DNA of 64,000 bases, taken from the NCBI RefSeq assembly GCF_005780165.1, contig NZ_VAUV01000001.1, positions 186,001-250,000 of the forward strand, given 5' to 3'. A program made the translations under genes and the position numbers. This document shows positions 40,813 to 42,555 of this stretch, in pieces. Source of the DNA: Phragmitibacter flavus (GTDB taxonomy: Bacteria > Verrucomicrobiota > Verrucomicrobiia > Verrucomicrobiales > Verrucomicrobiaceae). Numbering within the stretch: position 1 is the first letter of the stretch; the number at the start of each line of letters is the position of its first letter. A model generated the notes under the pieces. That model was not told where the DNA came from and did no database searches. It was given only the letters and a program-made list of their open reading frames with translations.

Positions 40813-41304
40813 TCAGCTGCCATTTTTTACAGCTACCGTTGTCTTCAGGAGGGGAGGTCCCGCTGCGCTGGCCAATCGAATCGCCAATTCTTTCTGTTGT
40901 GCCTTTTGGAGGCTCAAGTCATCATTCCAAGGCCAGCCCTTGATCACGGCATGTTTTGGCGGTGGCTCATGTGAGTGCACTTCAAGCAGAATCTGCCTCA
41001 CTGAACCTGCTCGGATAAATGCAGCTCCGTAAAGTGTTCGTTCTCCAGCAGCATGGTGTCCCATCCTCCAGAGCTCTTCAACGGGTTCATCCCTACAACG
41101 AGAAACGGAAGTCTCTTGATCCTTAGGATTTGGTAGAAAGGCCGCTGGTTTAACCATCACACTGTTGTAGTGCCCGCTTTGAGTTAAAAACCTCGCGAGT
41201 TCTTCTTGGTCGTCGACGACCTCAGGAAGTCCAGACTCGAGCATGGTCATACTACAGAATCGATCTAATTCCCTGTTCAATGCGCGCCGGTATTTTCCAG
41301 CCAT
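40813..41304 (-). CDS. Uncharacterised protein, third gene of the TIGR04255 cassette
   Basis: I do not recognise the family. The 163-aa protein has helical N-terminal sequence (LNRELDRFCSMTMLESGLPE, DDQEELARFLTQSGHYNSVM), a central region VMVKPAAFLPNPKDQETSVS with Cys-Arg, then ELWRMGHHAAGERTLYGAAF, and a basic tail. It overlaps the upstream gene by 53 bases in another frame, so its translation is probably coupled. A Met at residue 20 is another possible start. The DNA is less GC-rich than the flanking regulator gene. Confidence 0.6.
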   Translation of the reverse strand: MAGKYRRALNRELDRFCSMTMLESGLPEVVDDQEELARFLTQSGHYNSVMVKPAAFLPNPKDQETSVSRCRDEPVEELWRMGHHAAGERTLYGAAFIRAGSVRQILLEVHSHEPPPKHAVIKGWPWNDDLSLQKAQQKELAIRLASAAGPPLLKTTVAVKNGS

Positions 41305-41758
41305 CGAAAAAAGCTACCGCATGCCCTTTGTCGGAGCCATCCAGCCAGGCATAAGAAAGGCGCGAACCATTGGAAACACTAAGGGAGAAAAGACGATACC
41401 TGGAACGAATCCAGTCGAACGAGATCGACCCATCAGGTTCAGGGGCAACTTCAGGCATTGGGATACCCACAGGCAGAGCCCTGATCAGTGAAACCGCGCA
41501 TCCTACCGTCAATTCATCAATAGGCATCGCTCCGTCGCCATCCCAATCAGGCAGAGCGCAATCATCTGCGAGCTTCCAAACTTCAGACATTGTGGTGGTT
41601 TGTGAGCCAAAAAGCGATTCTGCCCGCTCCGCATTTGAAACGACTTCCCGGGCAGCGCTCTGAACTGCCTGTGCCTCATTCGATACGGCGCTTCCGCCGA
41701 ACGCAAACATCTGCATGGCAGCATAACCTAACCCAAGTTTCGATACAGATTCAGACAT
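41252..41758 (-). CDS. Uncharacterised protein, second gene of the TIGR04255 cassette
   Basis: A 168-aa protein of unknown family. An Ala/Ser/Glu-rich N-terminal part precedes a compact domain with DCALPDWDGDGAMPIDELTV, LIRALPVGIPMPEVAPEPDG, and SISFDWIRSRYRLFSLSVSN. The pattern "LPDWDGDGA...PxPDGxIxxxW" looks conserved, and I recall similar small proteins beside TIGR04255 genes, but this is unverified. It overlaps the genes on both sides (31 and 53 bases). A Met at 41716 would remove the upstream overlap. Confidence 0.6.
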   Translation of the reverse strand: MSESVSKLGLGYAAMQMFAFGGSAVSNEAQAVQSAAREVVSNAERAESLFGSQTTTMSEVWKLADDCALPDWDGDGAMPIDELTVGCAVSLIRALPVGIPMPEVAPEPDGSISFDWIRSRYRLFSLSVSNGSRLSYAWLDGSDKGHAVAFFDGWKIPARIEQGIRSIL

Positions 41759-42555
41759 GATTCGGTGAGAGTGTTCTCAAAAATACGATTCTTCAGACTC
41801 CTTAATGACATAATCTGTTCGACAATCCAGCCCCAATTCTCAATTTTTCCATATTCTGCGTGATAAACGCCTATGTCAAAAATCATTGGCAACGCGCTTC
41901 CTTCTATTTGTTGGCTCGCCAACACTATATTGGCCTGGTTGCCAGTGCCTTTTTCTACAGCGGAGTGTTGATGCAAAAAACCAGAAAATTCCAAATTGCT
42001 TTGTTCAGGCAATTGGGGGCTGATCCTCAAGAAATCCGTGGTTTCCAACGCTCCGCCCCGGAGAGGTAGGTTTAACCGGTTGATATACCGAAGTCGAATC
42101 CCTTTCACTTGGATCGGAGCAGTCAGGTCAACGAACAAACTCCACGTTCTTTCAATCTCCATCACGTAGTCGTCGAGGTTTGAGTAGGGTGCCAGCCGAT
42201 TAAATGAAAATCCTTGTGTTCGCACCTGCACGAGCTGGTTCTTGTCCACTTGACGGAATTGGAATGCCTGGATCTGCCGGATTCGGCGATGCTTGGCCGG
42301 TCCATCGGTATTGGGTTCAAATTGATGCTGTTCGACAACTTGCGTCTGAAATATTGGGTAACGATCACCGAAAGCCGACCGCGCTTCTGCTTCCAGGGTC
42401 AAAAGGTTGAAATTGACCGGCATATCACAGTCGATGTCCACGACAGCTTCCACAATAGGGGGGGAAGAAAGCCTTAGATTGTTTTCGCTCATTGACGGCA
42501 TCTTATCTAAGATTTGATCTTTGAAAACTCCATTCAGAGGGGCATCAAAAGTCAT
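41728..42555 (-). CDS. TIGR04255-like sporadically distributed protein
   Basis: A 275-aa protein resembling the TIGR04255 family, whose members occur sporadically in accessory regions and have no known biochemistry. Visible features are LSSPPIVEAVVDIDCDMPVN near the N terminus, RRIRQIQAFQFRQVDKNQLV, RTQGFSFNRLAPYSNLDDYV, GIRLRYINRLNLPLRGG and a C-terminal IMSLRSLKNRIFENTLTES. A Met at 42492 gives the start closest to conserved sequence; 42555 is the longest option. It is the first of three overlapping minus-strand genes. Confidence 0.7.
   Translation of the reverse strand: MTFDAPLNGVFKDQILDKMPSMSENNLRLSSPPIVEAVVDIDCDMPVNFNLLTLEAEARSAFGDRYPIFQTQVVEQHQFEPNTDGPAKHRRIRQIQAFQFRQVDKNQLVQVRTQGFSFNRLAPYSNLDDYVMEIERTWSLFVDLTAPIQVKGIRLRYINRLNLPLRGGALETTDFLRISPQLPEQSNLEFSGFLHQHSAVEKGTGNQANIVLASQQIEGSALPMIFDIGVYHAEYGKIENWGWIVEQIMSLRSLKNRIFENTLTESCLNLYRNLG

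What the first reader, a model, noticed from the sequence alone, without database searches (positions are those of the whole stretch)
40813..42555. Overlapping three-gene cassette headed by a TIGR04255-like gene
Three minus-strand genes overlap by 31 and 53 bases, so they are likely translated as a unit. The first resembles the sporadic TIGR04255 family of unknown function; the other two are unassigned but look like compact real domains. The block is more AT-rich than its neighbours and sits between a two-component system and a decayed FGE-like gene, typical of mobile accessory DNA. It is the best candidate here for an undescribed multi-gene system, possibly in defence or stress.
Basis: partly seen in the sequence, partly recalled or inferred. 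Interest (0 to 1): 0.7.

Follow-up and report, generated by a model that had tools for sequence, protein, structure and literature searches.

The report
TIGR04255-headed three-gene toxin-like cassette
Three small bacterial genes that travel together across phyla turn out to belong to a larger, apparently undescribed family of three-gene units that keep the same first gene but swap the last one, in several cases for a known RNA- or DNA-cutting toxin, which suggests a modular toxin or phage-defence system.

Summary
The cassette is real and conserved. Gene 1 is a TIGR04255 protein (98.7 bits, cut-off 30). Genes 2 and 3 match no Pfam or NCBIfam family, but the same g1-g2-g3 order recurs in other members of the phylum and in Proteobacteria, and the three genes diverge in parallel (Mantel r 0.82-0.86). 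The 31-nt overlap of genes 1 and 2 recurs exactly in homologues; the 53-nt overlap of genes 2 and 3 is most likely a longest-ORF artefact (start 41250).

58 sampled TIGR04255 loci were assigned to eight classes by their downstream genes: g2(+g3) 25, HTH + 'DCD' protein 13, small + 'TCD' 9, PIN 4, unknown pair 3, HEPN 2, HNH 1, YhaV toxin 1. By position, window gene 3 is the effector. Its confident AlphaFold2 model resembles ADP-ribosyltransferase folds, but only in a second-look structural alignment; Foldseek and sequence profiles gave no support.

Restriction genes lie within four genes of 6 of 20 homologous cassettes against 1 of 19 control stretches: suggestive, not significant (one-sided p 0.053). 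The window copy has no recognised defence neighbour.

Best reading: an undescribed modular tripartite toxin or abortive-defence system. Toxicity, neutralisation and phage defence are untested.

The parts
41728..42555 (-). Gene 1: TIGR04255 family protein (likely start 42492); AF2 model resembles TBP/AdoMetDC-like or guanidino-kinase-like folds
   Evidence: 98.7 bits, cut-off 30; pLDDT 92
41252..41758 (-). Gene 2: 168-aa protein with a C-terminal domain marked by WDG...LP..P.P...EPDG.IS.DW; overlaps gene 1 by 31 nt; presumed adaptor or antitoxin (inference)
   Evidence: (no Pfam/NCBIfam; weak PADLOC PDC-M32A E 0.014)
40813..41250 (-). Gene 3: 145-aa protein (start 41250 by homology, not 41304); candidate ADP-ribosyltransferase-fold effector; S48 and H100 invariant in 19 of 19 rows, R20 in 16 of 19
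   Evidence: (pLDDT 95.3, pTM 0.87)
40814..40835 (-). Terminator-like stem-loop followed by a T run at the 3' end of gene 3
   Evidence: 4 terminator-like sites found in the region against 1.9 expected, so weak

Best explanation
The cassette is one class of a modular three-gene toxin or abortive-defence system. SHOWN: TIGR04255 is the constant first gene, followed closely by a class-specific second gene and, in nearly all sampled loci, a class-specific third gene. In four other classes the third gene belongs to a toxin or nuclease family: PIN, HEPN (weak match), YhaV, HNH. INFERRED: gene 3 of the window is therefore the effector, possibly an NAD+-using ADP-ribosyltransferase with an R20-S48-H100 active site in place of R-S-E. 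Gene 2 is its partner, most simply the neutraliser, because gene 2-gene 3 pairs persist in three genomes in which no TIGR04255 gene was found. Gene 1, a duplicated beta-sheet fold, is the common sensor or regulator that keeps the effector silent until infection or stress, then releases it.
For: Fixed g1-g2-g3 order across phyla; parallel divergence over 16 loci, Mantel r 0.856, 0.855, 0.823, 0 of 2000 permutations as high. 58 TIGR04255 loci fall into eight downstream classes. Pfam: YhaV 1.5e-45, PIN 2.9e-11 to 1.1e-5, HNH 1.4e-5, HEPN 5.6e-4 (below its cut-off). Class labels cluster on the gene-1 tree yet change 12 times (least possible 6; shuffled mean 23.9), i.e. partners were swapped. Restriction genes within four genes of 6 of 20 cassettes against 1 of 19 controls. 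Gene 3 fold: the top 16 of 38 rows of the second-look alignment are ART-type proteins (KptA/Tpt1 Z 5.4-8.0, rmsd 2.6-4.3 over 90-102 residues; AvrPphF ORF2 Z 5.5; TreTu 4.1; NarE 3.3; that the last three are ARTs is recalled), next row Z 3.2. g2-g3 pairs without TIGR04255 in G030, G327, G324.
Against: No experiment. The restriction-gene excess is not significant (p 0.053), and one control stretch holds a Hhe/PDC-S37-like defence candidate. Foldseek gave nothing below E 0.001 for gene 3 in PDB or viral models; Z 8 is what models without a clear match typically reach (note); profile-profile comparison of gene 3 with KptA gave no signal (E 0.25-0.55, like reversed controls). In classes A, B, C and F (50 of 58 loci) the third gene, where present, is in no known toxin family. 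Of the 25 class A loci, third genes of 17 are linked to gene 3 by clustering or profile (two of them only weakly), 6 by eye only, and 2 loci have none. Some g2-bearing loci (L061, L062, L064, L065) lie among genes that read as housekeeping. YhaV and HNH are single examples. No PADLOC system matches the cassette.
Confidence: 0.5

Rival explanations
1. Accessory module of restriction-modification systems: the three proteins help or guard an adjacent type I, IIG or III restriction enzyme (for example by restraining it or by killing the cell when it is lost) rather than forming a system of their own.
For: Cassette directly after hsdS in L021, between hsdS and hsdR in L060, directly after type III mod and before a RelE-UvrD gene in L019 and L050, with mod several genes upstream and the same kind of RelE-UvrD gene directly downstream in L066; type IIG beside L020; a type IIG remnant on the other strand beside L052.
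Against: No restriction gene found near 13 of 20 cassettes, L066 counted as near (flanks are short in some loci), nor near the window's; the partner restriction type differs; TIGR04255 operons of class B on plasmids have no annotated restriction gene within 4 kb in 4 of 5 examined, the fifth having an MT-A70 methyltransferase (this annotation is incomplete).
Confidence: 0.18
2. Ordinary toxin-antitoxin or plasmid-addiction locus without a defence role: gene 3 toxin, gene 2 antitoxin, gene 1 an accessory such as a chaperone or regulator.
For: Antitoxin-before-toxin style gene order; known TA toxins (PIN, YhaV) in the third position of sister operons; TIGR04255 proteins like a class B head on 16 plasmid records, 8 of them conjugative, 5 of 5 examined with the class B partners. 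The defence association is weak.
Against: No plasmid match was found with four gene 2 or gene 3 queries, so class A does not look like a plasmid-addiction unit; restriction genes beside several copies.
Confidence: 0.24
3. A conserved metabolic or stress-response operon, gene 3 being a small NAD+- or nucleotide-binding enzyme and gene 1 an enzyme of the guanidino-kinase or AdoMet-decarboxylase fold.
For: Gene 1 model resembles guanidino kinases (Z up to 8.5) and AdoMetDC/prozyme (Foldseek 1e-4); several copies sit among genes that read as housekeeping.
Against: Sporadic presence of gene 2 (15 of 387 and 7 of 369 genomes), phyla interleaved in the gene-1 tree, and swapped downstream toxins do not fit a metabolic pathway.
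Confidence: 0.05

Closest known systems
TIGR04255 (NCBIfam 'sporadTIGR04255', function unknown)
   Same: Gene 1 scores three times the cut-off over nearly the whole model
   Different: The family entry describes one protein; no paper naming the family was found, so no description of the operons or of the swapped third gene was seen
Type II toxin-antitoxin systems (VapBC, PrlF-YhaV, HEPN toxins) and tripartite toxin-antitoxin-chaperone (TAC) systems
   Same: Compact, often overlapping genes; PIN and YhaV toxins occur in the third position of sister operons
   Different: Three genes with a constant TIGR04255 head; the head's model resembles TBP/AdoMetDC/guanidino-kinase folds, whereas TAC chaperones are SecB-like (recalled)
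KptA/Tpt1 tRNA 2'-phosphotransferases and other ADP-ribosyltransferase-fold proteins (DarT, RES, TreTu)
   Same: Gene 3 model has the same order of strands and helices as the KptA C-lobe (my reading) and second-look Z up to 8
   Different: No sequence-profile similarity, no KptA N-lobe, and the HGT and VG.R motifs of KptA are not in gene 3; its invariant residues are S48 and H100
Polymorphic-effector defence systems such as CBASS (recalled)
   Same: Constant core with exchangeable effectors
   Different: No nucleotide cyclase recognised; only three small genes

Membership tests
TIGR04255 protein family | Score above the curated cut-off over the model | tested here: met
   98.7 bits against 30, profile 1-249 of 252
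Type II / tripartite toxin-antitoxin | Adjacent, probably cotranscribed genes in conserved order | tested here: met
   in the clustered second-gene families 42 of 42 frames open at most 27 nt after gene 1's stop, against 80 of 188 next genes in control stretches. Only same-strand frames were examined behind TIGR04255, so the comparison flatters the 42
Type II / tripartite toxin-antitoxin | Toxin of a known family at the toxin position | tested here: not met
   window genes 2 and 3 match no Pfam, NCBIfam or PADLOC family at a usable score; met only in sister operons
Type II / tripartite toxin-antitoxin | Toxicity of one product neutralised by another | not testable with these tools
   needs expression tests
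ADP-ribosyltransferase superfamily | ART fold | tested here: inconclusive
   top 16 of 38 listed rows are ART-type, Z 8.0 to 3.3, but Foldseek found nothing under E 0.001
ADP-ribosyltransferase superfamily | Sequence-profile similarity to a known ART family (KptA tested) | tested here: not met
   hhalign E 0.25-0.55, no better than reversed profiles; DarT and RES profiles were not tested
ADP-ribosyltransferase superfamily | Catalytic triad R/H - S/Y - E (recalled) at the matching strands | tested here: inconclusive
   R20 (16 of 19 rows), S48 and H100 (19 of 19) lie in strands 1, 2 and at the start of the last strand; H instead of E; no coordinates superposed
Known anti-phage systems in PADLOC 2.0.0 | Match to a system protein | tested here: not met
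   only PDC-M32A, E 0.014 and 0.034, gene 2
TAC (toxin-antitoxin-chaperone) | SecB-like chaperone | tested here: inconclusive
   SecB is not among the 50 rows shown for gene 1; absence there is not exclusion

The most novel reading that the evidence does not exclude
TIGR04255 proteins are the common sensor or lock of a previously unrecognised, widespread family of tripartite defence operons. The third gene is an interchangeable killer (PIN, HEPN, YhaV, HNH, the uncharacterised DCD/TCD proteins, or, as in the window, a new ADP-ribosyltransferase branch with an R-S-H active site), and the second gene adapts each killer to the common head.
Probability: 0.33. Interest if true: 0.85.

Novelty: new variant of a known kind. 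Interest (0 to 1): 0.67.

Why it matters
A family labelled 'sporadic, function unknown' becomes a testable hypothesis: look behind any TIGR04255 gene and the third gene is predicted to be a toxin or effector. That would give function to several unassigned families at once (g3, the DCD/TCD proteins, the class F pair), offer a source of new effectors, and raise the question of how one head protein controls unrelated toxins.

Tried and rejected
Fold of gene 3 by Foldseek: nothing under E 0.001 in PDB or viral models (best was an unnamed 149-aa viral protein, E 0.0073; some lower rows are labelled T5orf172 or DUF3627). Sequence link of gene 3 to KptA by hhalign: no signal. PDB profile searches: gene 1 hit only 9hnh (E 2.4e-6, two short stretches), whose one paper in the library concerns designed solenoid proteins, so taken as spurious (search listing only); gene 2 hit only Mis12 at E 1.3; gene 3 none. 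A shared hydrophobic N-terminus of the second genes looked striking by eye but failed: mean peak hydropathy 1.37 against 1.61 in control proteins and 1.23 in shuffles, not significant. A search of viral contigs with gene 2 found no relative. Plasmids: none with gene 2 or gene 3 queries, one distant TIGR04255 with gene 1; phages none with gene 1. No flanking direct repeats; no integrase recognised by eye beside the window cassette. Promoter scan found none.

Limits of the neighbour test: 133 cassette and 144 control proteins (up to four genes of 100 aa or more on each side) were chosen; to meet the size limit 6 and 7 large ones were left out. The 7 control ones were scanned later: one (L092) matches Hhe and PDC-S37; the 6 cassette ones were never scanned. 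Of 20 control stretches fetched, L088 yielded no genes, so 19 count. The methylase of L066 lies outside the four-gene limit, so L066 is not among the 6 of 20; counting it gives 7 of 20, p 0.026, but then the comparison is uneven. Gene calls come from my own script and missed the small cassette genes in several loci, the window's included; some short frames in GC-rich loci are probably spurious. In the gene-1 tree 10 of 58 rows were left out as short under the script's trimming. L132 and L158 were put in class A by eye; L136, L153 and L133 in their classes by Pfam.

Full report
OBSERVATION. The three minus-strand frames exist at the stated coordinates. Gene 1 is a nearly full-length TIGR04255 protein, 98.7 bits against a cut-off of 30. 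Genes 2 and 3 have no Pfam or NCBIfam match; PADLOC gives only weak PDC-M32A matches to gene 2 (E 0.014 and 0.034). The gene 1/gene 2 overlap of 31 nt is conserved: exactly 31 nt in L019 (Sulfuritalea) and L020, 22 nt in L002. The gene 2/gene 3 overlap of 53 nt comes from taking the longest frame; homologous starts align with the ATG at 41250, one base after gene 2's stop. GC is 0.495 against 0.565 for the window.

CO-OCCURRENCE. A profile of gene 2 finds 15 of 387 genomes of the window's phylum, the window's own included, and 7 of 369 genomes of the class of the Sulfuritalea genome G433, with 8 places. Profiles of the three genes show the same strand and order g1-g2-g3 at 17 distinct places: L001 (the window), L002, L004, L005, L007, L008, L010, L011, L012, L014, L019, L021, L025, L027, L028, L029 and L031, with L011, L012 and L029 the weakest. 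In L026 gene 3 is only partly readable. L046 has TIGR04255 with very divergent g2 and g3. Exceptions: L003, L015 and L016 have g2-g3 without g1, and no TIGR04255 was found in their genomes G030, G327 and G324; L006 has a stop codon inside g2, L009 shows g2 alone and L013 a g2 with a g3 fragment; L017 has g1 and a weak g2 only; L030 has a TIGR04255 gene, g2, and a third gene whose profile link to gene 3 is weak (E 2.6e-4). Across 16 loci with all three genes, pairwise distances of g1, g2 and g3 correlate (Mantel r 0.856, 0.855, 0.823; 0 of 2000 permutations as high). Gene 3 of Sulfuritalea, a proteobacterium, is 62% identical to the window's, and in the gene-1 tree the window's group of six mixes members of its phylum with genomes of the Sulfuritalea class, which points to horizontal transfer.

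NEIGHBOURHOOD. In the window the cassette follows an HK-RR pair. The block of upstream gene (VWA-like by my reading), HK and RR is conserved in three relatives (L114-L116) and HK-RR in two more (L117, L118). Four of these genomes (G001, G005, G007, G011) have no gene-2 match and the fifth, G030, has a g2-g3 pair on another contig, so the cassette is accessory at this place; nothing recognised beside it marks a mobile element. In homologous loci, restriction genes lie within four genes of the cassette in 6 of 20: L021 (directly after hsdS), L060 (between hsdS and hsdR), L050 and L019 (directly after a type III methylase), L020 and L052 (type IIG); L066 has the same type III methylase model further upstream. 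A RelE-UvrD helicase gene follows gene 3 directly in L019, L050 and L066. Control stretches from the same genomes: one restriction gene among 19 contributing stretches, plus one Hhe/PDC-S37-like protein. Fisher one-sided p is 0.053 for 6 of 20 against 1 of 19: suggestive only. PADLOC matched 186 models among 127 neighbour proteins and 11 among 137 control proteins at E<=1e-10, but one protein can match dozens of models, so loci are the fair count. Other copies lie among genes that read as housekeeping (L057, L058, L061, L062, L064, L065).

ONE HEAD, MANY TAILS. TIGR04255 was searched on its own: 12 of 288 genomes in the phylum, 15 loci, and 35 of 369 in the class, 43 loci, some of them fragments. 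Same-strand downstream frames of these 58 loci were clustered by sequence and read by eye where needed. Classes: A, g2 (+g3), 25 loci; B, HTH protein + 'DCD' protein, 13; C, small protein + 'TCD' protein, 9; D, small protein + PIN, 4; F, unknown pair, 3; E, small protein + HEPN, 2; G, HNH, 1; H, YhaV toxin, 1. Of the class A loci 23 come from clustering of g2 and L132 and L158 from reading; third genes of 15 cluster with gene 3 or with its weak relatives in L145 and L148, two more (L053, L074) match its profile, six are put there by eye (L128, L129, L132, L147, L154, L158), and L059 and L075 show none. Pfam: PIN 2.9e-11 (L070), 1.5e-8 (L125), 7.2e-9 (L151), 1.1e-5 (L136); YhaV 1.5e-45 (L133); HNH 1.4e-5 (L153); HEPN 5.6e-4 in L069, under its cut-off, and not called in its homologue in L140. 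Third genes of B and C are linked (hhalign E 1.7e-7 for B against C2, 6e-8 for C1 against C3; B against C1 only 0.007), whereas the second genes compared (B, D, F against A and among themselves) are not detectably related. In the clustered second-gene families 42 of 42 frames open at most 27 nt after the stop of gene 1; in control stretches 80 of 188 next genes are same-strand with a frame opening by +30, a comparison that favours the 42 because only same-strand frames were examined. On the gene-1 tree (48 of 58 rows) the class label changes 12 times, where 6 is the minimum and 23.9 the shuffled mean, with well supported mixed pairs such as HEPN (L140) with TCD (L168), 100/100. So the head is inherited while the tails have been exchanged. 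TIGR04255 proteins like a class B head are on 16 plasmid records, 8 of them conjugative; 5 of 5 such regions examined carry both class B partners. A Crinalium plasmid has another pair behind TIGR04255, with an HNH and a DNA methyltransferase gene in the same stretch.

STRUCTURE. Gene 3 is predicted with high confidence (pLDDT 95.3, pTM 0.87). Foldseek finds nothing under E 0.001, but in the second-look alignment of Foldseek's own top 1000 chains rows 1-16 are ADP-ribosyltransferase-type proteins (KptA/Tpt1, AvrPphF ORF2, TreTu, NarE) and the next row drops to Z 3.2. The order of strands and helices equals that of the KptA C-lobe (my reading). The most conserved residues R20 (16 of 19), S48 and H100 (19 of 19) lie in strand 1, strand 2 and at the start of the last strand, where ART enzymes keep their triad (recalled); this is inference. 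Against it: no profile similarity to KptA, and Z 8 is not exceptional for models without a clear match (note). Gene 1 (pLDDT 92) resembles AdoMet decarboxylase/prozyme (E 1e-4), TBP (E 0.005) and, by second look, guanidino kinases (Z 8.5) and TBP (Z 6.9): a duplicated beta-alpha fold; no function follows.

MECHANISM. Shown: a conserved three-gene unit with a constant head and exchangeable tails, several tails being toxin or nuclease families. Inferred: the third gene is the effector, so the window's gene 3 is a toxin-like enzyme, perhaps an ADP-ribosyltransferase; gene 2 is the class-specific partner; gene 1 is the shared sensor or lock. Defence against phage is suggested only by restriction-gene neighbours and by the nature of the sister effectors.

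LITERATURE. Searches for TIGR04255 and for CHP04255, IPR026349 and sporadTIGR04255 found no paper in the library that names the family; only open-licence PMC papers are held. Searches for tripartite TA with HEPN/PIN/YhaV and for three-gene operons with interchangeable toxins listed 3 and 1 papers, none with a title or abstract start that describes this unit (listings only). One of them (PMC11980606) was searched for terms and read in passages about YhaV; it holds neither TIGR04255 nor UvrD.

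Noticed in passing
   Followed up: no
L019 2457-4571, L050 6844-8934, L066 10323-12398: A RelE-like (my reading) + UvrD-helicase gene follows gene 3 directly in three cassettes from different phyla, each with a type III-like methylase upstream (PDLC03632 in L019 and L066; N6_N4_Mtase in L050).
   Followed up: partly
L050 13381-14328: NYN-domain gene between the ResIII-domain and methylase genes of a type III-like restriction cluster.
   Followed up: no
L123 2913-3719, L162, L171 5492-6196 and others: Unassigned 'DCD/TCD' protein family (motif [TH].[DTS]CD[LI]) as third gene of TIGR04255 classes B and C, in 22 of 58 loci; six members were scanned and had no Pfam or NCBIfam match apart from one weak, spurious-looking Pfam match for L073.
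   Followed up: partly
L129 2712-3161, L145 616-1074, L148 609-992: Divergent gene 3 relatives with an N-terminal LYR(R/S)I-like or LWRRV motif and, in L145 and L148, a HA.V.GKK ending; the profile link of L145/L148 to gene 3 is only E 2.6e-4, L129 is by eye.
   Followed up: partly
L002 86-553: HEPN-like gene with an R-x4-H motif just upstream of a class A cassette; weak Pfam support (E 0.044).
   Followed up: no
L060 1980-5558: 1193-aa protein with a PIN-like start (my reading) inside a type I restriction cluster, no PADLOC match at E 1e-20.
   Followed up: no
L169 4229-5301 (Crinalium plasmid): TIGR04255 gene close to class A followed by two proteins that match none of the g2, g3, B or C profiles tested.
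   Followed up: partly
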